From Pleodorina starrii (taxonomy: Eukaryota > Chlorophyta > Chlorophyceae > Chlamydomonadales > Volvocaceae), in contig BRXU01000028.1 in assembly GCA_030267565.1 (NCBI GenBank), positions 955,001 through 1,019,000 on the forward strand: DNA of 64,000 nucleotides, read 5' to 3'. How positions within the stretch are numbered: the first letter of the stretch is position 1; each line of letters begins with the position of its first letter. The notes below the pieces were generated by a model. The model did no database searches. It was not told the origin of the DNA and worked only from the letters and a program-made list of their open reading frames with translations. The translations under genes were made by a program, and so were the position numbers. Below are positions 50,530-64,000 of this stretch, in pieces.

Positions 50530-53500
50530 CTACGGTTGCTGCTGCGATGGGCGCCTAGGCGGGCTGCTGGAGGCCGACCCAGACGGCACCGCGCCCTTGC
50601 TGCAGAGCAGGCGCAGGATGCCGGCGGTCCCGCCTCCGCCGCTGCCGCCGGTTGCTCCGGCGCCGCCGCCCCTGGCGCGGGATCCCCGAGCCGACGGCGC
50701 CACCCCGGACGCCCTCCCGGCGCTGCTCGGTTGCGACATCTCCTCCTCTACACTCGACCGGTGGCCGCCGTTGCTGGCAGCGCTGCTGCCGCGAAGCTCC
50801 CCGAGAATCGGCGGCTGTGGTTCCGCCGTCTTGCAAGGCGGAGGTGGCGACGGCGCCGCCGCCGGCGCTGGCAACGAGATTTCGGCAACGCCGCAGACGA
50901 CGGCGCTTCCAAAGGCAGCCAGAGATGGCGGCGGCGGCAATGGCGCGTCCGCGCCGACACCGCCGACGCCGTTCGCCTGTTTAGCTGCTGCAGAGCGCTC
51001 GGGGATAGTCGGAGCGGGCCTGGGCCCTGGTGCAGCGGCGGCAGCGGCGGCCGCCGCCCCCATGGCAGCTCGCCCGAGAAGCCTCTTTTGCTTACAGCTA
51101 GCAGAGCTGCCATCTGCGCCAGGGCTAGGGTGCGAGAACGACGGCGCAATCTTGGCGGCGCCGCCGTCGCCGCTGGCACGACCGCCGGGGCCGCTGCCGG
51201 CCGAGAGTCCGCTTGTCTCTGTGGTCAGAAACATGTCCGGCGGGGCGAATGACGGGTTGGGGTATACGGATACGCCCCACGTCGGCGGACCATCTCCAGC
51301 GCCGCCGCCAGAGCGCTCGGCCTCGCCGGCGCCGGCACCTTCGCCGGGCATGGCCGCCGAGTGCGGCGAATCGCACATGCGCGGCGCCGGCAGCAGCGAG
51401 CGCTGCGGCCGCACGACCGGAGGCGCGCCGCTGCAGGCCAGGCCAAACGTGCGGCTTCCGCCAGTGTCCCCCTGCCCCAGCGCAAGGCTACCATTACAGA
51501 TGCTGCCCTGGCCGACGCTTGCGAGCGCCAGGCTCAGCTGCTGCCGCAGAAGCGCCGCTTCCTTCTTCAGGTCCTCGAGCTGCGCCGCCACCGCGCCACC
51601 CGGCGCGCCCTGCGCTGCACCGCCGCCGCCGCCAGCGCCGCCAATGTTGATGCCCAAGCTGTCGGCGCTGGAGCGGCTGCCGTGCGCCGCCACCAGCGCC
51701 TCCGTCAGGGTCAGGTGCAGCGATGTGCCCTTGGCCGACAGTGCCGCTGCCCCAGGGGTCGGCGGCGCGGCAGCGCCCGCCGCCAGCGCCTCGGCGGCGG
51801 CGGCGCCGCCGCTGATGCCCGCCGCCAGCAGCGCCCGGAGGTCGCGCGCCTGGCGCCGCCAGCCGTCGCGCTCGGCCGCGAGTGTACAGCATGCCGTACG
51901 GAGCGCCGCCACGCGCGAGGTGAGCTTCTCGATGTCCGCCTCGACGGCGCGGCTCCGGCGGACCTCCGTCAGCACCTCGCGCATCAGCGCCGTCGCCGCC
52001 GCCGGCTCGCTGCCGTTGGCGTCGCCGCCAGCGCTGCTGCCGTCAGCCGCCGCGGGCGCCGAGCCAGCAGCCACAACCGCGGGGCTCTCGGTGCTGGACG
52101 CTACCGTTCTCACCGGCGTCTCCGCGGTAGCTGCGAGGGCGCCGGCGCTCAGCACGACCATTGGCGGCATCGCCCCAGGGGCGGCCGCCGCCGCTGCGTC
52201 GATCTCCGTCGATGGAGCACTAACGGTGCCTTCGGGCAGGGCTCGTAGGGGCCTGCTCGTGATCATCACCGCATCGGCTGTCAGCGCCCGCCTCCGGTTG
52301 AGGACACCTGACGAGTCACTCGACTGCGGCGCCGCCGTCGCCGACGCAATGGCGGCAGCAGCGGTTGCGTCAGTTGAGCCAGCGTCACCCTGCGCTTGAC
52401 CACCACAGGGCGAGGCCAGGAGCGCCAAAGGCGCCGTCGCCGGATCGTTTGTCGGCCCAGGCCGTGCGGCACCTTCACATGTCGACGTCGGCGCTGCCGC
52501 CGGCTCCGGCGCGGCCCCGGTGCGGCTGAGGGTGCCCTCCCGCTTGTACAGACCCACCTTCCCCCAGCTTCCGTCTAGGCCACCGCGGTTCGCCTCCATG
52601 CGCAACTTGATCAAGTCGGGGGTGGTCTGCTGCAGCAGCAACGCGTCAACCGACGTCTGGCGGCTGTCCTGCGAGAGCGGCGGCGGCGGCGGCAGCGGCG
52701 ACGCCAGGTCCGAGCCGCCGCCAACGCCACCGCCAAGCAGCGCCCGCGCCGTCAACACCGACGACGCCGCGCGCGAAGCTCCGCCCGCCGCTACCGCTCC
52801 CAATGACAACGACGACGCCTGAGGCGGCAGCTCCGCCGCTGCTGCCGCGGCTCCCGGCGGCGGCGCCGAACACACTGCCGCCGCCGCCATCCCTGGCTGC
52901 GGCGGCGCCGGAGGCGCCGCCGCCGCTGCCGCCGCCGCCGCGGCGGCCTCCAGCAGGCTGTCGCGGGTGCGAATCTGCGCCTTGATGCGCGCCACCATCT
53001 CCGCGCGCTTGTACGGCTTGGTCATGTAGTCGTCGGCGCCCGACTCGAAGGCCTCGTCCACCGCCGCCGAGTCGCCCTTGGCCGACACTATGATGATGGG
53101 CAGCTGCGCGGAGGTAAAGTGCTCCCGCAGCTTGCGGCACACCTCAAAGCCGCTCATGCCGGGCATCATGACGTCCAGCAGCACGCAGTCGGGCAGCACG
53201 GCGGGCAGCAGCAGCGCCTGCGCGGCCGCGGCGGCGGCCGCCGCCAGCGAGGCCGTCGGCGACGGCGCGCCGGCCGCCGCGGCGGCGGCGGTGGCGGTGC
53301 CGGGCCGGGGAATGAGCTGCAGGTGCGCCAGCGCCTCGGGTCCGTTCATGCACTTGACGACCTTCCAGGACTGGCTGTTAAGCATTTGGCCAGCGACCAG
53401 CTGGTTGATCGGGTCGTCATCCACTGATACGACCTGAGGACAGAGCGGCACAGGAGTAATAAGGGGGACTATCCACGTAAAGGCCGGGGGGGAGGCGGGT

Positions 53501-56500
53501 TCACAGTGCTGTGGATTGGTGGATCTGGTTGCAATAACCAGCCCCCTCGCCCCTACATAACCATCTAGTCCAATCTAGGTTAAGTGCGGTGTTCAGCGAA
53601 GGGTGCGGGCCCAATCTCGGCACGGCCGCACTTGGCCGCTAGCGCCGATGCTGTGTCCAGGGCAACCGTCCCCTCTTCCCGAGTTTTCCAACCCAACCTG
53701 GCCGCCCCAACAAGGCCTCCACAACACACACACACTCCGGGATCCGGGTCGTGACGACTTGCGCACCTGCAGCACGCCGTTGTTCCGGTGCCGGAAATTC
53801 GGCCGCAGCCCGCCCCGCGCCAGCGCCCGCCCCTCCTCAATCGCCTGAGCAACGTCGAAGGGCGTCGCCGTCGATATGCGACCGGCCGCGGCGGCAGTGG
53901 GGGTCTGGGTGGGCGTGGGCGCCAGGGCCGGCGTCCCCAGGCGCGCCGGCGTCGACAACGACGTCGCAGTCCCCAGGGGGGCCAGCGGCGCCCCGCCTGC
54001 GACCCCGCTACCACCGCCGCTGGCGGCCGCGGTGGCGTCTGCGCTGGTGGGAGCTGGCGCTGCATCCGCCGCATCCCCGGATCCAGATCCAGATCCGAGT
54101 TCCGCAGCCCCGCCGGCGCTGCCCGCGGCGGCACGACCCACGGGCGACGGCTCGGCAGCCATCGTGCAGCACCCATCGGCGCATGCGAACCGACATCGCC
54201 CCCCGCCCACCGGCGGCTGTGGCGGCAGCGGCGGGCAGCTCGCCGGCGGCCTGCTGTGCGACTCGTCCAGACTCATGCGCAACATCCGGCTGTTGGCGGG
54301 ACGAAAGACCCCCTGCAGCGGAAACGTGCCGGTGCGCGCCCGCTGCGGCTCCGCCGGGCCCGCGGCGGAGGCGCCGCCGCTGCTCCCACCCACGCGGCCG
54401 GCGCTGAGCCTCACTAGCCGGGCCGTGGCAGAGGCGATCCAGGGCTTTGGGGAGGCAGGCGCGCACGGCGTGGGCTTGGGGGAGGAGAGCAGCGTCAGCT
54501 TGGGCGACGAGGAGCCACCGCCGCCGCAATCCGCCACCCCGAAGCCCTCGCTGGCAATGGTGGCGCCCGACAGGGTGCGACTGGATCGCGCCTCGCCGCC
54601 TCCACAATCGCAGGCCGAGCCGGACAGCGGAGCCTGAGAGCCCGACAGCGCATCGTTCACGCGCCGCCTTTCGTCCAGCGAGCTCCCCCGCCGCTGCTGC
54701 TGCTGTTGCTGCGTCAGCCCCGCGTGCCTTCCGCTCGGATGGCGCTCCGGGTGCTGCGAGGGTTGCGATTGCAGTGCCACGGGCAGCCGGAAGCGAAAGA
54801 CCGAGCCGATGCCGGGCGCCGACTCGGCGGTAATGTCGGAGCCCTGAGCCCGCAGCGCCAGACGCACTAGGTACAGCCCAAGGCCGGTGCCGCCAATGGA
54901 TTTGGATGCCCTGCCAGTGTAGCCCTCGCCGGGTGCGGTGTCTGTGCCCTGCGCTTGTCCCGTACGGTATGGCAAAAACAGCTCGTCCAGAAGCTCTTGC
55001 GCGATGCCCACGCCCGTGTCCTCCACCGAAATCTCGACCTTGGCCCCCGGAGGGAGGCTGGCCACGTAGTGGCTGGAGCATGACGACGCGGACGAACCTG
55101 AGAGTCGCGGCCTGGCGTAGCGCCAAATGCTGCTGGCGCCGCCACCGCCGCTGCTGCTGATGCTGTTGACGCTAGCGGCGGCCGCGGCAGCGCTGGCGGC
55201 GAGGTCGCCAGCGGCGCCGTCGGCGCAGCGGGTCGACGGAGCCGATGCTGGCGGCGCCGAGAGCGGCGCCGCCGGGGCCGCCCCGTCCGAGGGCTCCGGC
55301 AGCACAATCCTCGCCGCGATGCGCACCTCGCCCTGGGTGGTGAAGCGCATGGCGTTACCGACCAGGTTGTACAGCACCTGCAACGGTTGCGTTCGAGGGC
55401 GGCAGTGTGGTGCAGCAGTCAAGCGTAGCGTCGTCGGGCAAAGTGGACGTCGCCCGTGCCTCTGCATTTTGGAAGGATCAACGGCAGTCACTGGTATCGG
55501 TCGCGGCAGGAGGGCAACCCGAGTCCGCATAAAACACAGGCCAAACAAATGAGCATCGCACAACACAGCGCAACCCCAAACTCGTCCGGCCTATCCAAAG
55601 CACAAAACCCGTCCGGGTGCGGCGCCCTGTTGCACAGCACCCCCTCATCCGCGCCGCAGATCCGGCCCCCAACCCTCCTGCCCATCTCCTTCCACACGCT
55701 CCCCCTCCAACCACCACACACTCCTCACCTGGCTCAGCCGCGTCACGTCGGCGACCACCTGCGGTAGGTTGGCCGGCAGGTCGCTGACAATCGCCACGCC
55801 ATCGTGCGCCAGCGGCCGCAGCACCGTCATCACCGTCTCCACCAGCGGCCGAAGGTCCAGTGGGAACAGCGGCACCGACGGCGCCACCGGGCCGGCGTCG
55901 TCGTGGGGGTGGTGGTACGGCAGCAGAGCCGCCGCCCCCGGCGCCGCCGGCTCGCCACCTCGCCTCGCCGCGAATGAGTCCAAGGTCGACGTGACGATGC
56001 TGAGCATGCAGGTGGCGGTCGCTCTCACGGTGGCCAGGTTCTGGGCGCTGCTGGGCAGGGCTGCAGAGACCTCCTGGCAGAGGCCCTCGGACAGCGCTGC
56101 GCAGGCGGACAGCGACGTCGGGTCGGGGGGCGGACGGACAGCGTGGGGCAGAGGACCCGGGAGGCGGGGAGCGTGGGGAGGACACCAGCGCCGCGGGGCA
56201 GAGGACACAAGGGAGACCGAACGGAGGGACGACAGCGCAGCGCGAGCAGACAGCAGCGTCGTTGTGGGAAGTGGACCACCGGCCGGCGGTGGACCACCGG
56301 GGAGAACGACGGGAAGGGGCTTGACGGCCCGGGGGCGTCTGGTCTCAATGGTATTGCCGCAACCGACGGTGGCGCTGAAGAGCTTCGCCGACGCCGCTAC
56401 CAGCACGTGGCGTTCCAAATGGGTCTGTGTGGGTCCAGCTACCAGCGAGCCGCGCCGGACCTCACGCCTGCTCGACGTCGGACGTGGACAAGCCACCAGC

Positions 56501-58838
56501 GGCAATGGCGCCCAGCCTCAGGCCTAGCTCCCCCGCCCGCCCACCCACTCACTCAATCCCAGCTCACCCACTATGCCCGCCAGCGGCGTCCGCAGCTCGT
56601 GACTGAGCGTGCTGAGCAGGTCGTCCCGCTGCTTGAGCAGCGCCGTGAGCCGCGTCACCGCCTCCACCCGGTTGCTGGCCTCCCACACCTCCAGCGCGCG
56701 GTCGCGTCTCAGCTGCACCTCCGTGAGGTTGCTCTGCCACAGCTGGCTGCTGAACACCACCTTGGCCAGGTAGTCGCACACACCCCAGGCCACAGCCTCC
56801 GCCTGCGGACCCATCAGCTGCAACTCAGCAGCCAGCCACACCACAGGGAAGGCGCTCCACAGCGCCAGTAGCAGCGCTAGGACGGTGCGCAGCGTGCAGC
56901 GCTGCTCGGGGGATATGTCGCCGGAGAGGGTCCTGGAGCGGGGGCAGGGAGCGTGAAAGAGAGGGAGTGGGGAGGTCAGGGAATGATATGCTTCTTTATA
57001 TAACAATGGGAGTGGGGAGGGAGGGGCCAGGATGGACGGGGTGAGGGCGGAACGAGTTGTCGCGAGGGCGGAAAGGGTCGTCGCGAGGTGGAACGAGCCA
57101 GTCAGAGGACAAGACCCAGGGCGCGCTAGGACCAACCAAGGGACAAGCCCTGATCGAGATGACAACAAGGTGGTGTATACGCGGCTGGCCGCAAGGCGAC
57201 AGGGCGATACGAAAGCGCGATACTAGCGTGCCAGCCTGGCATCGTACGCTGAGTACCCCCGGCCCCTCCAGGTGCCGTACTCACCCTTGGAACATGCCGT
57301 ACACATAGAACAGCACCACCGCGAAGGTCCCGAACGACAGCAGTGTCGCCACCAGCTTCAGCAGGCCCGCTGTGTAGCAGGCCGCCAGGCCGGTCAACAC
57401 CATGACCACGTCGCTAAGCAGCGGAATCGTCAGCTGCGAACACGGAAGAGGCAGCGCAGCACAGCGCAGCGGAAGCCGGCGAGGGCTTGGAAAATCGTCG
57501 CTCACGCGCACGGGCAGGGAGGGGCAACGAACCGTTGGGACGCATGACATCGACCAGATCGCTTCCGCATCCACCCACCCGGCACCTGATCGTCGTGCCC
57601 GCGACATCTCACCGCGCATCAGCCGACTTTGCCGACCCCCTAACCACGCACACGGGGTAAGAAAAACGATTCACGCACGGCGGTACGGGGTACCCCGTAA
57701 CGTGTCCCGACGCCGCCCTGCGCATATACCAGGGATCAACCCGCTTTCCGTCAGCCCTCCTGAACTCCTACAAGGCGGTAGCCCTGGAGGAGCAGTGGGC
57801 CCCAACCCCAGTAAGTCCCCCATGCCCTCGTTGCTCCTTTTGCCGGGGCCCGCCGGCCCACAGCCCAGCCCACAGCCAGGCGCAGCTGGCCGCACCTGCC
57901 ATCCGCTGCAGTCCGCCAGCAGCGCCAGCATGTAAATCATGGTGGGCGTGGAGTGGCACCACTGCACGTAGCGCAGCGGCGCGAAGGGCCGCCCCGAGGA
58001 CGACATGAGCACCGTGGTCGCGCCGCGCCACAGCAGCAGGTCCGTCACGAAGGCCACTCCGTTGATGTACAGCAACAAAAGATTGCACTGCGGGGGCCAT
58101 GTGGGCCAAGTGGGTCAAGACCCGATTCGACACGGTCTGGTGCATGGTGGCTCATGACTGTGAGATTAAAGGCGCAGGCAAGGTCCCCGGGCGGTATTTG
58201 AGGGACCGGGTGCGGCGCCAGGCAGTGGACAGTGCGTGTTGGCTATCAGCGCACTGGAAGGTGATCAGCAGCGGCAGCCTTGCCAAGCGCGCCCATGAAC
58301 GAGCGATGTTGACACGCCCCGGACCCCGAGCCTACGGCAATGCTCTGTAGGTCACCACCTTACTTTGAAAGGTAGCAAATGCTGCCGCATGCCCAGGTTG
58401 AGCAGGTTGAGCAGTAGTACAGCGCCAAAGGCCGCCTGCACGGCGGCAGCACGGAGATGCCAGGCACGTTAGGTGGGGCGAGGTGAGGTGAGGTTAGGGC
58501 ATGCGGGTTATTATCCAGCACGGAGTAGAGCATGTCGTCGAAATCTGGGGTCAGCGTGAGTATGAAGGGCACCTTTTTTGCGGTGGTGGTCTGGTCGCAC
58601 GGCCGGTCGCCGCTCCCTTCGGCCGACACCAGTGCCAGACCCGCCCCACCCACCCATCCCGCTGCCACTGAGCCCGCGCCCTGTCTAAGCAATCGTCTCC
58701 GAGGCCACCACCGGAGGACTGTGCGGCTTCCCCCGCGACGATGCGGTTGCATAGTGCGCATAGCGAGGAGGGCGCCAGCTCACCGTTTGGACCTGGAACG
58801 TCCATGCCACCGATGACACCTGTAATCAGCGCGTTCAT
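50530..58838 (-). CDS. Histidine kinase rhodopsin (microbial-type opsin, HisKA, HATPase, receiver)
   Basis: Exons: 58838-58784, 58667-58522 (alternative start of this exon 58718), 58435-58364, 58087-57896, 57433-57285, 56932-56568, 56096-55729, 55377-53767, 53433-50530; all phases agree, about 1953 residues. The N-terminus is a microbial-type rhodopsin. Helix A is DDMLYSAAFGAVLLLNLL, helix B LLLLYINGVAFVTDLLLW, helix C RYVQWCHSTPTMIY, helix F ALWSAFPVVWLAAE and helix G WGVCDYLAKVVF. The retinal Lys is about 262 (codon 56763-56761) and the helix-G Asp about 258. Helix G leads straight into HisKA (STLSHELRTPLAGIVALSEG; His about 316, codon 56601-56599), then HATPase (YNLVGNAMRFT, EDTGVGIAQE, GGTGLGLYL) and a receiver (VSVDDDP, LLDVMMPGMSG, IIIVSAKG, DYMTKPYKRAE). 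The kinase and receiver look catalytically intact. An Ala/Pro/Gly-rich tail of about 800 residues with two short coiled coils follows. No cyclase domain is seen, unlike Chlamydomonas COP5-type proteins. The exon 2 borders are the least certain. Confidence 0.9.
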
Positions 58839-60447
58839 TTACCACAGATCTTGACTCTTTCCAAGACACTCCCGGCCGGGTACACAGCAAGCAGGACTAG
58901 TTATCCGACCAGGAAAACGTAACGAACAGCAACGCCTGGACTGCTCGACTGTTCGATCCAAAATAATCCCAGGAATTCCGTCGCAATGTCATTAAGCGGT
59001 ATCCCGCTGCCTACAGCTAAGCGCACGCGGGAAAACTGTCGAGTTGGTTCCGCTCCCATCCTCATAGCCGCCTCACAGGGCAAAATACGTATCTCTTCCC
59101 CAAAGACCATGCAAAACCATGCCTCGGTGGACGTTAATGTCGCCCCACCTGCTCATCCAAGTTGGCTGAAAAGCTCTGGGTGTCCTGCCTCTCCAAGTAA
59201 AACGCGCACGCTACATATGATAGGCTTCCCAAGCTGCGACGCGAATAGACGACGACTCAGGAACGCTGTGCTGACACAAGCAACTTCTGTTCGGTTCCTT
59301 GGCGCTTTACCTGACCCAAGCCGTGACAGGTGTGTCGACCCAATACAGCTGGTTAATGAACGTTCTCGGCATCCGGCTTACGGTCTTCAGGACCCGTCCG
59401 CGGCCATGACCAAGCCCCGAAACGCCCGTGAGGTCTGTCTCCATTTTCAGTGCACTCCTGTCTTCTCCTGGCGGGAGCCATCAACCAGCTGTCCTATAAT
59501 CCTAAGGTTCAACCACAGCTATCCAAGTTTGACATTCTTCAAGGCAGGCGGCTGAGCGCATAGATAGAAAAGTTATTCTCACGACGCCGTAAAGTTATTA
59601 GAATAAAATACAGAAGGACTGATTTTGCTTACAGCTCTGAACACAAAAGACGTCAGGGCTGGCACTGCCAGGTTAAGGATGCCCTTGTACTGCAAATCTT
59701 AACGACTTATTCACCCTGCCGTAGCTTTCCCGAAGAGCAAAATTTCTCGAGCGCTCCAATTACCGCTGTTTTGGATGTAACTATACTAGTGTATTTACGC
59801 TGTTTGCTGTCGCTGTGCCGCAATCGCCCAGCCGCCAAGACAAGTGAACGCTATTCAGGTCAGGAATCAACCCAAGATCGGGAGTCCACCCAATAACCCG
59901 TTCTAGGCAAATCAGTCACGAATGTCTCAAAACGCAACACACCTGAGTCATGAACCGTACACGTACTGCGGTGCTGCGATACGCACCAGGCACCACGGAA
60001 AACGAATGGCACTCCGAGATACGTTTGGAATCCCCGCATCCTACGAACCAACCCACGACAGTTGCATTTATAATGCCTTGCCCAATGAGCAAGATTCTTG
60101 GCCACGACGGTACGGGTGACGACAACTGCAGCGCTACTCCCGGCGATCAGCAGATTTCCACAAACATATCCATAGGACTGGTGCGCAGCTACTTCATACG
60201 CCCACGGCCCGTGCGTTTGTCGCTGGTGAAGTCCAAACACCAAGTCGAGGTCTGCCTAGGAACTTGAACAGACGGTTTCGATCCTACCCTGCAACGCCTA
60301 GCAAAGTAGCTTGGGATGTCCCGGTCCATGCAGCGCAAAAGCAACGCCGGTTGACCCCACAACCACCAAACTACCTGCTGTTCATCCATGGGATTGGCCA
60401 ATACCGTACAGGCGTGACCGCCTCGTATTCGGTCATCGCCTATGCCC

Positions 60448-60893: not shown

Positions 60894-63800
60894 TCATTGC
60901 TGCGCACGCGTGACGAAGCCGGAGCCCCCTGCCGCGCCGCTGCCTCCGTCACCGCCTTCGCTTCCGCCTGCAGCCACGGCGCCGCCCAGGCTCTCCTTCA
61001 GCGACGCCAACACCTGCCGCCGGTCCCGCGTGCGCGCGTGCTCCAGAACCACCGCCGCCGCGCGCGTGTACAGCAGCTCCAGAGCCTCCAGCGACCAGCC
61101 GGCAGTGCCCGCCACCGCCCGATCCAGAAGCGCCTTCGCCCGTTCCAACGCTACTGGGTCCTGTGGGTCGCGCTCCGCCGTCGGCGCGGCCTCCGCCGCC
61201 GCAGCGCCGTGGCTGTCCGCCTCCGGCGGCTCTAGCCCCCGCTGCCTCGGCCGCCCTTGCAACGCGTCTCGATCGGCGTCCGGCGCTGCTGTCCCCACGA
61301 ACGTGTGCGTCTCGGACCGCGCAACACCGGGTTGTCGAAGCCGGCCCTGCTGCTGCTGGCGTCGGCCCGGGCTGTCTTCAGCTGCGCCCGCAAGCGCATG
61401 CGCCGCGCCAACATCCACGTCCATGGCATCGTCGCCATCCTGCTCTGCACCCGCATGCCCCTCCCGTCCCTTGCCCTCCGACGCCGGCCCGTCGGCCGCT
61501 GCCAACGGCCCTCCTGACCCACTCGGCCCAGCCTGGCCCCCCTCCGCCGCCCCTCCGTCCGCCAGCTGCGCCTCCGGGTGCGGCTCCTTGCCGGGCGGAG
61601 ACGTCGCCTCCTTGCCGTCGTCGCCCGCGTGCGCCTGCGACCGGCCTGCGTGCGCCGCAGCCCCCGCCGCCGACACCTGCTGCTCCCGCTCGCGCTGCTG
61701 CTGCTGCTGCTGCTGCTGCTGGAGCCGCGTCTTGCGCAGCAACGCCTCCGGGTCGTCAAACATGGGGATACGCGGCCCGTCCGAGTGGCCGCCGGCCTGC
61801 CCGCCCGCGCGCTGCCGCGTCACGTAGCCCCCCGTGCCGGGGCCGGCGCCTCCGGCGCTGCCCGTCCCGCCGGCGCCGGCTCCGCCGCCGGTGCGCGCCG
61901 CCGCCGCTGCCTTAGCCCGCGCCGCCGCCAGCTCCTCCGGCAGCTCCAGCCCCGGCGGCGGCGGCGCTGGGCCGCCCCTGGCCTTCATGTCCTCGCAGCG
62001 CTTGGCCAGCTCCAGGGACACGCGGGCCTTGACCAGGTGCTCCGCCTCATCCGCCAGGGAGGTGGCCCGGCTGACCTCGCGGGCAGAGTCCTCAAAGTAC
62101 TCGCGGGCGCCCTGCACAAAGTACACGCGGCGGAGTACAGTACAGATGTACAGTACAGTCGGCGGAATGGAGCGGAAAAGTGGAGCGGAGCGGAGAGGAG
62201 CGACCGTTGCGTGCCGTGTTGCTCCGCGAGTGGCCGTGTTGCCGTGCCATTTGGGCTCTCATCTACCTCCTATCGCATGTTTCAGAGCTAAACCGCGGAG
62301 CTGTGCTACCGTTCCAAGTTACAGACAAGCCGCCCTTGACAGCTATCAAGGTGCCCGCTCCCTCTCCTGCCTCTCAAGCGGAACTGCTCACGCGACATCC
62401 GACATGGGCACTGCCTTCATTCCTTCATTCCCCCGCCCCAAGCCTCATTCCCCCGCCACCCCACTCCTTTTGCATTGCAAACCGGAAACCAACCACACGC
62501 CAGCGACCCACCCACCCACCCGCCCCACCCGCCCACCTGCACGATGAGCGCCATGTCCGCCAGGTACTGTCCGATGGTGCCGTACTGCCGCCCGTCCACC
62601 CGGGCCAAGATGGTGGCCAGGTCCATGGGGCAGCTCACCTGCACCCCAGGGAGGGAGCCAGGTGGAGGCAGGTGGGGGCAGGTGGGGGCAGGTAGGCCTA
62701 GGTTATGTACAGGGCCTCGTTCCCGTTTCAAGCCAGCCCTTCGACCCTAGCATTCCTTTAGCCCTTTCCCTTCCCCGAACCCAGGCACGCTCCCCAGTTC
62801 CTCCACCCCAGGCGTTCAGCGTTGTGGGGCAACACATGTTCCTGGCGGCCCAGCCAGTAAAACATGTTACAGCCTCACGTCCACGTTCGCCGGACCACGT
62901 CTACCGGGCGTTCTGCGCCTGGCTTCGCAGCTCTCGCCCACCACAACTAACAACCACACCCTTTCCTCGGGACATTCCACTCACCACCTCCCAGTATCTG
63001 GGGTCCTCCTCGGGGCTCACGGGCGCCCAAAACTGCTTCCAGCGCCGCTCATTCAGCAGCGTCAGCGTCACGCCGCGGAGGGCCATCCGCAGCGCCCGCA
63101 GCGCCGCCTGGTCCTCCTCGAACGCCCGCCGCGCCGCCAGCTCCTCAGCGCTGCGAGCAGCCGCCTCGCGGGCCGCCGCCACCGCCGGGTCCTTGGGCAG
63201 CGGCTCCGCCGCGGCGGCGGCGGCAACCGACGGCGACGCGTCGGCTCCGGCGGCGAGGATGGCCGGGTCGACCGGCTCCGCGGCGGCCATGATGGGCTCC
63301 TGCGGGCGGGTGAGGCAGAAGCACGGGTGCGAGGAAATGTAGCCGATGCTGCCTCTATGCCGATGCGCCCTCTCATCGCACCACAGGCCGAGGGGCACGT
63401 AAGGCGCTGCTGGTCCCTGCTCCTGCCCACTGCCCCCGCATCCCTCCCACTCACTCACCCCGGCGCCCCTGCAAATTTCCCTACATTACGGCACCGTGCA
63501 CCGTGCTCCCCTCGCAGCTCAGCCCACATCCCCCAAACTACCCTGCTTCCCTCCCATCTTTCCTAAAAATACCAAGTCAGGATAACAAGCCAGGACAACG
63601 AATCAGGATGACGAACCAGGAAAACGAATCAGGACAACGAACCAGAAGTAAGCGATCCACCCGGTCCGCGTCCCTTCAGCTTCCGCGCTCCCCTCCCCTC
63701 CCCGCCCCGCCCCTCCCCGCCATACGTTCCCCCTTGTGCACCTGCAGCAAGTCCCTCCGCTGCTGCTCCGTGGGCGGCTGCAGCCCCACCACGTCCCCGG

Positions 63801-63991
63801 AGCCCCCGAAGATGGCGGTCCGCGCCTCCCGGTCCAGCGCCGCAAACGGCACATCGGCGGTTGCCAGCAGCAGCAGCGGCAGCTCCGGCGGCAGGTCGCG
63901 CAGCAGCATCACCAGCGTGGCGCGCAGCTGCGGCGGCGCCGTCTGCCACCACAGCTGCAGGTGCGGCAGGAACAGGATGGCCGGGGCGGAC
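60894..63991 (-). CDS. ATAD2/Yta7-like AAA-ATPase with bromodomain, 5' partial
   Basis: Four exons join in phase: 63991-63742, 63299-62985, 62638-62537, 62111-60894; about 627 residues before the stop, with the 5' part beyond the window. The first exon is the end of a second AAA module: PAILFLPHLQLWWQTA (Walker-B-like strand with no acidic pair), LLLLATADVPFAAL (sensor 1) and DVVGLQPPTEQQRRDLL. The second and third exons carry a bromodomain: ALRMALRGVTLTLLNE, CPMDLATILARVDGRQYG and YLADMALIVQ, continuing as GAREYFEDSAREVSRAT in the last exon. ATAD2 and Yta7 act on chromatin, removing or loading histones near acetylated nucleosomes. The Asn that contacts acetyl-lysine, expected just after the LIVQ helix, is Gly here. 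The last 350 residues are Gly/Gln/Ala-rich, with a predicted helical end (ALERAKALLDRAVAG, LEALELLYTRAAAVVL) reminiscent of the ATAD2 C-terminal helices. Confidence 0.85.
63563..63651. repeat. Imperfect AGGACAACGAA(T/C)C repeat in an ATAD2-like intron
   Basis: About six degenerate units of 13-15 bases (GAATCAGGACAAC, GAACCAGGAAAAC and variants), in the intron between exons 63742 and 63299. Confidence 0.75.
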
Positions 63992-64000
63992 CTGCGGAAG

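What the first reader, a model, noticed from the sequence alone, without database searches (positions are those of the whole stretch)
50530..58838. Complete histidine kinase rhodopsin gene
Seven microbial-rhodopsin helices run without a linker domain into HisKA, HATPase and receiver modules. Seen directly: retinal Lys in CDYLAK, helix F WSAFPVVW, phospho-His in SHELRTPL, N, G1 and G2 boxes, and receiver Asp and Lys. From family knowledge, Chlamydomonas HKR1 is a UV/blue photoswitch, so this is a likely light-gated phosphorelay. The family is known, but this member appears intact and unusually long.
Basis: partly seen in the sequence, partly recalled or inferred. Interest (0 to 1): 0.75.

Follow-up and report, generated by a model that had tools for sequence, protein, structure and literature searches.

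The report
Alga's Cop7-type light-sensing histidine kinase

Summary
A microbial-opsin, HisKA, HATPase and receiver gene lies on the minus strand with the named motifs present. The 5' end is wrong: the start codon at 58838 is an out-of-frame reading, and three true exons lie at 59444-58784. The corrected gene is 50530..59444, 10 exons, 1971 aa, 96% identical end to end to a deposited Pleodorina starrii protein. The new exons add a hydrophobic stretch before helix A, so eight helices are predicted, not seven. Assembly statistics match P. starrii NIES-4479. The Volvox carteri counterpart carries exactly the residues and numbers published for Vop7, so this is the P. starrii Cop7/Vop7 ortholog. HKR1/Cop5 has its own locus here, so the 'UV/blue switch' inference does not carry over. 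Unlike Cop6 (2c-Cyclop), no cyclase was found. After the receiver comes a ~790-aa tail holding a heptad-patterned coiled coil conserved in the five orthologs found. I infer a light-modulated hybrid kinase whose signal leaves through the one HPt protein detected in the genome, or through the tail; neither is tested. Its length is ordinary. New member of a known, functionally uncharacterised kind.

The parts
59311..59444 (-). Exon 1, start codon at 59444; N-terminus and first part of the extra hydrophobic stretch (residues 1-44)
   Evidence: tblastn of P0001 44 of 44 identical; GT donor, frame
59149..59233 (-). Exon 2, rest of the extra hydrophobic stretch
   Evidence: tblastn of P0001 29 of 30 identical; AG/GT borders
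58784..58819 (-).
58364..58435 (-). Exon 4, helix A
57896..58087 (-). Exon 5, helices B and C; RYVQW with Gln151 at bacteriorhodopsin position 85
57285..57433 (-). Exon 6, helices D and E
56568..56932 (-). Exon 7, helices F and G (retinal Lys280 at 56763-56761), connecting helix, phospho-accepting His334 (56601-56599)
   Evidence: codon coordinates worked out from exon table
55729..56096 (-). Exon 8, rest of HisKA and start of the ATP-binding region
53767..55377 (-). Exon 9, HATPase with N box, low-complexity insert, G1 (DTGVGI 587-592) and G2 (GGTGLGL 629-635), then linker
   Evidence: Pfam HATPase_c 2.3e-17; positions; borders
50530..53433 (-). Exon 10, receiver (Asp1091, Ser1121, Lys1143) with Ala-rich insert, ~790-aa tail, stop codon
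   Evidence: Pfam Response_reg 3.6e-23; positions; border
51817..51990 (-). Conserved coiled coil of the tail (residues 1486-1543)
   Evidence: heptad test and conservation; single match in the genome; coordinates worked out from the exon table

Best explanation
The gene is the Pleodorina starrii ortholog of Cop7/Vop7. It encodes a retinal protein with eight predicted helices that runs on through one helix into a hybrid histidine kinase. Retinal on Lys280, with Asp276 as the only carboxylate at the two classical counter-ion positions (Gln151 replaces the other), absorbs light. The movement of helix G is passed along a fixed 54-residue stretch to His334. Light thereby changes, most likely lowers, autophosphorylation from ATP and transfer to Asp1091 of the receiver in the same chain. 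No cyclase was found in the chain, so the signal leaves either by transfer to the one detected HPt protein and on to separate receivers, or by a change in what the conserved C-terminal coiled coil binds. Shown here: gene model, domains, intact catalytic residues, class, no cyclase match, conserved coil and spacing. Inferred: retinal binding, direction of the light effect, both output routes.
For: Spliced model 96.1% identical to a deposited P. starrii protein. Opsin, HisKA, HATPase and receiver matches. V. carteri P0002 has Q147, S151, T152, M158, D272, K276, the numbers published for Vop7 (PMC7693036 table); the window has the same residues at Q151...K280. Lys-to-His spacing is 54 in 7 of 7 database and window sequences and 3 of 3 joined paralogs, as in Cr2c-Cyclop1 (K298, H352; PMC6284317). 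Counterparts of K298, H352 and D1092, whose mutation removed light control or activity there, are intact. 0 of 106 cyclase matches in the genome lie on this contig and 0 of 5 orthologs have one. One HPt match in the genome. Tail coil: 12 of 17 a/d positions hydrophobic or Cys in the best register, 0 of 20,000 shuffles as good.
Against: No light response, phosphotransfer or expression was measured. The hydropathy scan at threshold 1.3 missed helices C and G and flagged one stretch inside HisKA (340-358, 1.31), so the extra helix (1.46) rests on a modest signal. The cyclase search scored 150 of 169 candidates and works exon by exon. The HPt count is a lower bound for the same reason. PMC7693036 lists SAM for Cop5-8 but Pfam shows none in the 5 orthologs at E<=1. 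Strain differences are not confined to the tail: 10 of 100 residues differ in 606-705 and only 4 of 299 in the linker 706-1004.
Confidence: 0.6

Rival explanations
1. It works: a UV/blue bistable photoswitch like Chlamydomonas HKR1 (Cop5) driving a phosphorelay.
For: Same overall plan of opsin, kinase and receiver; Asp kept at position 212 as in Cop5 (table in PMC7693036).
Against: Gln instead of Met at position 85, the Cop7/Vop7 residue set; a separate Cop5-like gene is present on C14. Cop6, which also has Gln at 85, peaks near 540 nm (PMC8006352 background), though it has Asn at 212.
Confidence: 0.15
2. The chain has no output of its own and acts by pairing with a cyclase-bearing opsin kinase such as the Cop6-like protein, changing its cGMP output.
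For: Cr2c-Cyclop1 works as a dimer and mixed dimers with a mutant are inactive (PMC6284317); heterodimers were suggested for Cop5 (PMC8006352); a Cop6-like locus with cyclase matches exists on C5.
Against: The tail coil is found once in the genome, so the Cop6-like gene shows no matching coil at that sensitivity. No direct evidence.
Confidence: 0.12
3. The opsin and kinase exons are two genes, or the locus is decaying, and the joined reading is an artefact.
For: Introns and low-complexity stretches make such genes hard to model; the nine-exon model had two false exons, and the deposited V. carteri model reaches only E 0.0037 for HATPase.
Against: Five deposited models in five species put opsin, HisKA and receiver in one chain. 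The frame is open over 1971 codons. Residues 1-500 differ from another strain's protein at 2 of 500 positions.
Confidence: 0.03

Closest known systems
Vop7 (Volvox carteri, VOLCADRAFT_106206, P0002) and Cop7 (Chlamydomonas reinhardtii)
   Same: Same residues at six tabulated opsin positions; 82% identity to P0002 over the opsin region; opsin, kinase and receiver without a listed cyclase.
   Different: Cop7 compared only through the published table. That table also lists Trp at position 194 for Cop7 and Vop7, where the window has Leu by my reading, and SAM for Cop7, of which Pfam finds none in the five orthologs.
2c-Cyclop (Cop6/Vop6)
   Same: Opsin directly joined to kinase and receiver; Gln at position 85; 54 residues from retinal Lys to phospho-His; key residues intact.
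   Different: No cyclase; Asp, not Asn, at position 212. The Cop6-like gene of this genome is a separate locus on C5.
HKR1 (Cop5)
   Same: Opsin, kinase and receiver; Asp at position 212.
   Different: Met at position 85; spectrum of this protein unknown; own locus on C14.
Ostreococcus tauri rhodopsin kinase (Ot-HKR / Rhod-HK)
   Same: A rhodopsin kinase hypothesised to feed an HPt and a receiver (passages of PMC4343026).
   Different: Glu at position 85; its sequence was not compared here.

Membership tests
Cop7/Vop7 class | Residues Q, S, T, M, D, K at positions 85, 89, 90, 96, 212, 216 | tested here: met
   Window and 5 of 5 orthologs; P0002 matches the published Vop7 numbers
Cop7/Vop7 class | Closer to Vop7 than to the other opsin kinases of the same genome | tested here: met
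   65 of 66 residues shared with P0002 against 27 of 66 with each of three paralogs; the C19 paralog was not joined. No tree was built
Cop7/Vop7 class | Kinase and receiver present, no cyclase | tested here: met
   published table agrees
Cop7/Vop7 class | SAM domain (listed for Cop5-8, not for Vop7, in PMC7693036) | tested here: not met
   No SAM match at E<=1 in 5 of 5 orthologs, nor in the window frames scanned
2c-Cyclop (Cop6) | Guanylyl cyclase domain after the receiver | tested here: not met
   0 of 106 genome matches on contig C28; 0 of 5 orthologs
HKR1 (Cop5) | Met at position 85 | tested here: not met
   Gln151
HKR1 (Cop5) | UV/blue bistable absorption | not testable with these tools
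   Needs expressed protein
Type Ib opsin (eight helices, cytosolic N-terminus) | Extra hydrophobic helix before helix A | tested here: met
   Residues 40-58, mean hydropathy 1.46. Weak method: helices C and G fell below 1.3 and a HisKA stretch rose to 1.31
Type Ib opsin (eight helices, cytosolic N-terminus) | N- and C-terminus on the same side | not testable with these tools
   Charges (+2 before, -3 after the extra helix, +2 in the A-B loop) fit a cytosolic N-terminus but do not show it
Working hybrid histidine kinase | Phospho-His, N, G1 and G2 boxes, receiver Asp, Ser/Thr and Lys | tested here: met
   His334, Asn475, DTGVGI 587-592, GGTGLGL 629-635, Asp1091, Ser1121, Lys1143. Activity itself not tested

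The most novel reading that the evidence does not exclude
The Cop7 class is a cyclase-free branch of algal opsin kinases that has given up the built-in cGMP output for a plant-type phosphorelay: light on an eight-helix opsin controls how much phosphate reaches the one HPt protein found in the genome, with the conserved C-terminal coil as the docking or dimerising element. Retinal would then act on the kind of relay that cytokinin receptors use in land plants.
Probability: 0.25. Interest if true: 0.6.

Novelty: new member of a known kind. Interest (0 to 1): 0.33.

Why it matters
Cop7/Vop7 is a named opsin class for which I found no functional test; anyone expressing it needs the right N-terminus, and a model starting at 58838 lacks the first hydrophobic helix. 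Gln at position 85 with Asp at 212 is a natural third case beside Cop5 (Met/Asp, UV-absorbing) and Cop6 (Gln/Asn, green), so its spectrum would help to show which residue sets the state of the Schiff base. The 54-residue spacing from Lys to His gives a simple rule for building opsin-kinase chimeras. The neighbouring ATAD2-like gene offers a plain explanation for a published 'RPT1-bromodomain-rhodopsin' in Gonium.

Tried and rejected
Rejected: (a) a start at 58838 and the first two exons of my nine-exon rebuild, because the deposited orthologs place the N-terminus upstream. (b) A cyclase elsewhere on the contig: no match (150 of 169 candidates scored). (c) The coil as a repeat shared with other genes: one match in the genome; no solved structure at E<=0.1. 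(d) A TGTAA poly-A signal within 1200 bases after the stop codon: none; I draw nothing from this. (e) DNA-binding (Myb/GARP) response regulators near three separate receiver matches, by a motif scan only: none seen; one receiver with a C-terminal stretch that looks SAM-like to me (recalled, not scanned) is on C5. (f) The helix-G identity column printed 0.00 for three paralogs because my typed blocks were out of register; it is void and was redone. (g) Structure prediction was not run: the spliced opsin is not one contiguous translation and P0001 (1964 aa) exceeds the size limit. (h) No tree was built; the class rests on residue signature and identities. (i) Proteins labelled C. reinhardtii Cop7, Gonium GpRh5 or Dunaliella DsRh1 did not appear in the lists, which are limited by length and by shared words, so they are compared only through the published table. 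P0047 (1339 aa, HATPase and receiver only) may be a fragment of a sixth ortholog and was not used. (j) The Luck 2012 HKR1 paper is not held; HKR1 facts come from PMC8006352 and PMC7693036.
Full report
What is there. The stretch holds a gene on the minus strand with a microbial opsin followed by a histidine kinase and a receiver. Single open frames match Bac_rhodopsin, HisKA, HATPase_c and Response_reg. Spliced, the opsin reaches E 2.7e-21 and HisKA 2.6e-9.

Correcting the gene model. The finding gives its end points and speaks of nine exons but does not list them. I rebuilt nine exons between 58838 and 50530. The best database match, a Pleodorina starrii protein of 1964 aa (P0001), does not share the first 67 residues of that model. 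tblastn of P0001 against the window finds its N-terminus at 59444-59313 (44 of 44 identical), at 59235-59146 (29 of 30), and in another frame of the 58838 reading, ending at 58784. The V. carteri and V. africanus proteins support the first two exons at 55-64% identity. The Edaphochlamys and C. schloesseri models begin further in and say nothing, so support comes from 3 of 5 orthologs, one of them the same species. The corrected gene has 10 exons and 9 of 9 GT-AG introns, runs from 59444 to 50530, and encodes 1971 aa, 96.1% identical to P0001 from end to end. The two false exons also had GT-AG borders and consistent phase, so such agreement was not evidence enough.

Species. The genome is 136,057,477 bases in 95 contigs. 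PMC10256686 (passages) gives 95 contigs and 136.1 Mbp for P. starrii NIES-4479, the bisexual strain. With the protein match I infer that source. The same passages say that the gene numbers were supported by RNA sequencing; I saw nothing specific to this gene.

Eight helices. The new exons carry a hydrophobic stretch (residues 40-58, mean hydropathy 1.46) ahead of helix A. The first 39 residues have net charge +2, the next loop -3 and the A-B loop +2, as expected for a cytosolic N-terminus. Against this, the same simple scan at threshold 1.3 missed helices C and G, known by homology, and flagged a stretch of HisKA at 1.31. Tian et al. (PMC6284317; background and results part 1 of 4 read) showed same-side termini for Cop5, Cr2c-Cyclop1 and Vc2c-Cyclop1 and named this arrangement type Ib. 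Eight helices is thus the better prediction, not a demonstrated fact.

Which opsin it is. A table in PMC7693036 (figures and tables section read) lists for Vop7 Q147, S151, T152, M158, D272 and K276, and for Cop7 the same residues at other numbers. V. carteri P0002 has exactly these residues at these numbers; the window protein has Q151, S155, T156, M162, D276 and K280. One tabulated position differs: Trp at position 194 in Cop7 and Vop7 appears as Leu in the window protein by my reading. The genome holds separate opsin-kinase loci: Cop5-like (Met at position 85, C14), Cop6-like (Gln, with Asn at 212, C5), Cop8-like (Leu, C10) and Cop11/12-like (Cys, C19). Over 66 residues from the retinal Lys past the His box the window shares 65 with P0002 and 27 with each of the three paralogs compared; C19 was not joined. 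The window gene is therefore the Cop7/Vop7 ortholog, and the UV/blue property of HKR1 (Cop5) does not carry over.

How it may work. In Cr2c-Cyclop1, mutation of K298 removed light control and mutation of H352 or D1092 lowered activity to the light level (PMC6284317, mechanism section read). The window has K280, H334 and D1091. The spacing from Lys to His is 54 residues in the window, in P0001-P0005 and in Myrmecia P0006 (7 of 7), in 3 of 3 joined paralogs, and in Cr2c-Cyclop1 by its published numbers. A fixed length in such divergent proteins argues for one rigid helix from helix G into the kinase; that is inference. In Cop6, light lowers phosphoryl transfer; I expect the same direction here but could not test it. 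Against the other strain's protein, 2 of 300 residues differ in 1-300, 0 of 200 in 301-500 and 0 of 90 in the receiver end 1086-1175, against 34 of 796 in the tail. The contrast is not uniform: 10 of 100 differ in 606-705 and only 4 of 299 in the linker 706-1004.

Output. Cop6 carries a cyclase after the receiver. Here none is found: 0 of 106 Guanylate_cyc matches in the genome lie on this contig (150 of 169 candidates scored), and 0 of 5 orthologs have one. The published table lists cyclase for Cop5, 6, 8, 9 and 10, Vop6 and Vop8, not for Cop7 or Vop7. It lists SAM for Cop5-8, but Pfam shows no SAM in the five orthologs. In an alignment of the five orthologs the tail has two islands in which at least 40% of columns are invariant (27 of 60 and 12 of 31 columns). 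The first holds a coiled coil (window residues 1486-1543): 12 of 17 a/d positions are I, L, V, M, F, W or C in the best register, and 0 of 20,000 shuffles reach that. It has no second match in the genome and none among solved structures at E<=0.1. The genome shows one HPt match, a protein with HQFKGSS, on the same contig about 314 kb away. Of 14 HisKA matches, 7 lie on the large contigs C1-C28 and 7 on the small contigs C56-C79; 5 of the first 7 are opsin kinases. These searches work exon by exon, so counts are lower bounds. Two output routes remain: relay by HPt, or the tail. A route from a rhodopsin kinase through HPt has been proposed for Ostreococcus (PMC4343026, passages), so the idea is not new.

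A neighbour that may explain a published oddity. Upstream on the same strand are a bromodomain exon and AAA exons of what I take for an ATAD2/Yta7-like gene (name recalled). A long frame ending at 60894 may be its last exon, about 1.45 kb before the Cop7 start codon; the gene end is inferred. PMC7693036 reports a Gonium opsin, GpRh5, with the Cop7 residues (Q1412, S, T, M, D, K) behind an RPT1 ATPase and a bromodomain. The extra length, 1412 minus 151, is 1261 residues. The simplest reading is an annotation that fused these two adjacent genes. I could not inspect the Gonium locus.

Verdict. The gene is real, has an open frame, and was correctly recognised as a histidine-kinase rhodopsin, but with the wrong 5' end, probably the wrong helix count, and the wrong closest relative. 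It is a further member of a named class; the searches I made for Cop7, Vop7 and histidine kinase rhodopsin in open papers (listings, with passages of some papers) showed no functional test of it.

Noticed in passing
window 60894-64000 (-), continuing in L031 2871-4508 (-): Bromodomain and AAA exons of an ATAD2/Yta7-like gene directly upstream of the opsin kinase, same strand; may explain the published Gonium GpRh5 'RPT1-bromodomain-rhodopsin' as a fusion of two neighbouring gene models.
   Followed up: partly
L028 4560-5057 (+), contig C28 near 1328761: The only HPt match in the genome (HQFKGSS), on the same contig as the opsin kinase, about 314 kb away.
   Followed up: partly
L034 2731-3465 (+), contig C5 near 1157785: A separate receiver protein (245-aa frame) with a C-terminal stretch that looks SAM-like; possible relay partner. 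The SAM call is by eye.
   Followed up: no
P0002 (VOLCADRAFT_106206), residues near 474: The deposited V. carteri model loses most of the ATP-binding domain (HATPase E 0.0037, below cut-off) where the other four orthologs have it; likely a splicing error in the model.
   Followed up: no
P0004 and P0005: The deposited Edaphochlamys and C. schloesseri models start late and lack the extra N-terminal stretch and part or all of helix A.
   Followed up: no
G000 contigs C56-C79: Small contigs carry full-length receivers and HisKA domains in single open frames, which looks like bacterial DNA left in the algal assembly.
   Followed up: no
G000: C1 near 7479280, C31 near 1181850, C3 near 5406120: Three channelrhodopsin-like helix C exons (RYxEWLLTCP) in the same genome.
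   Followed up: no
L029 (contig C19 near 2516500-2522700): A fifth opsin-kinase locus with Cys at position 85, as tabulated for Cop11/12; exons not joined.
   Followed up: partly
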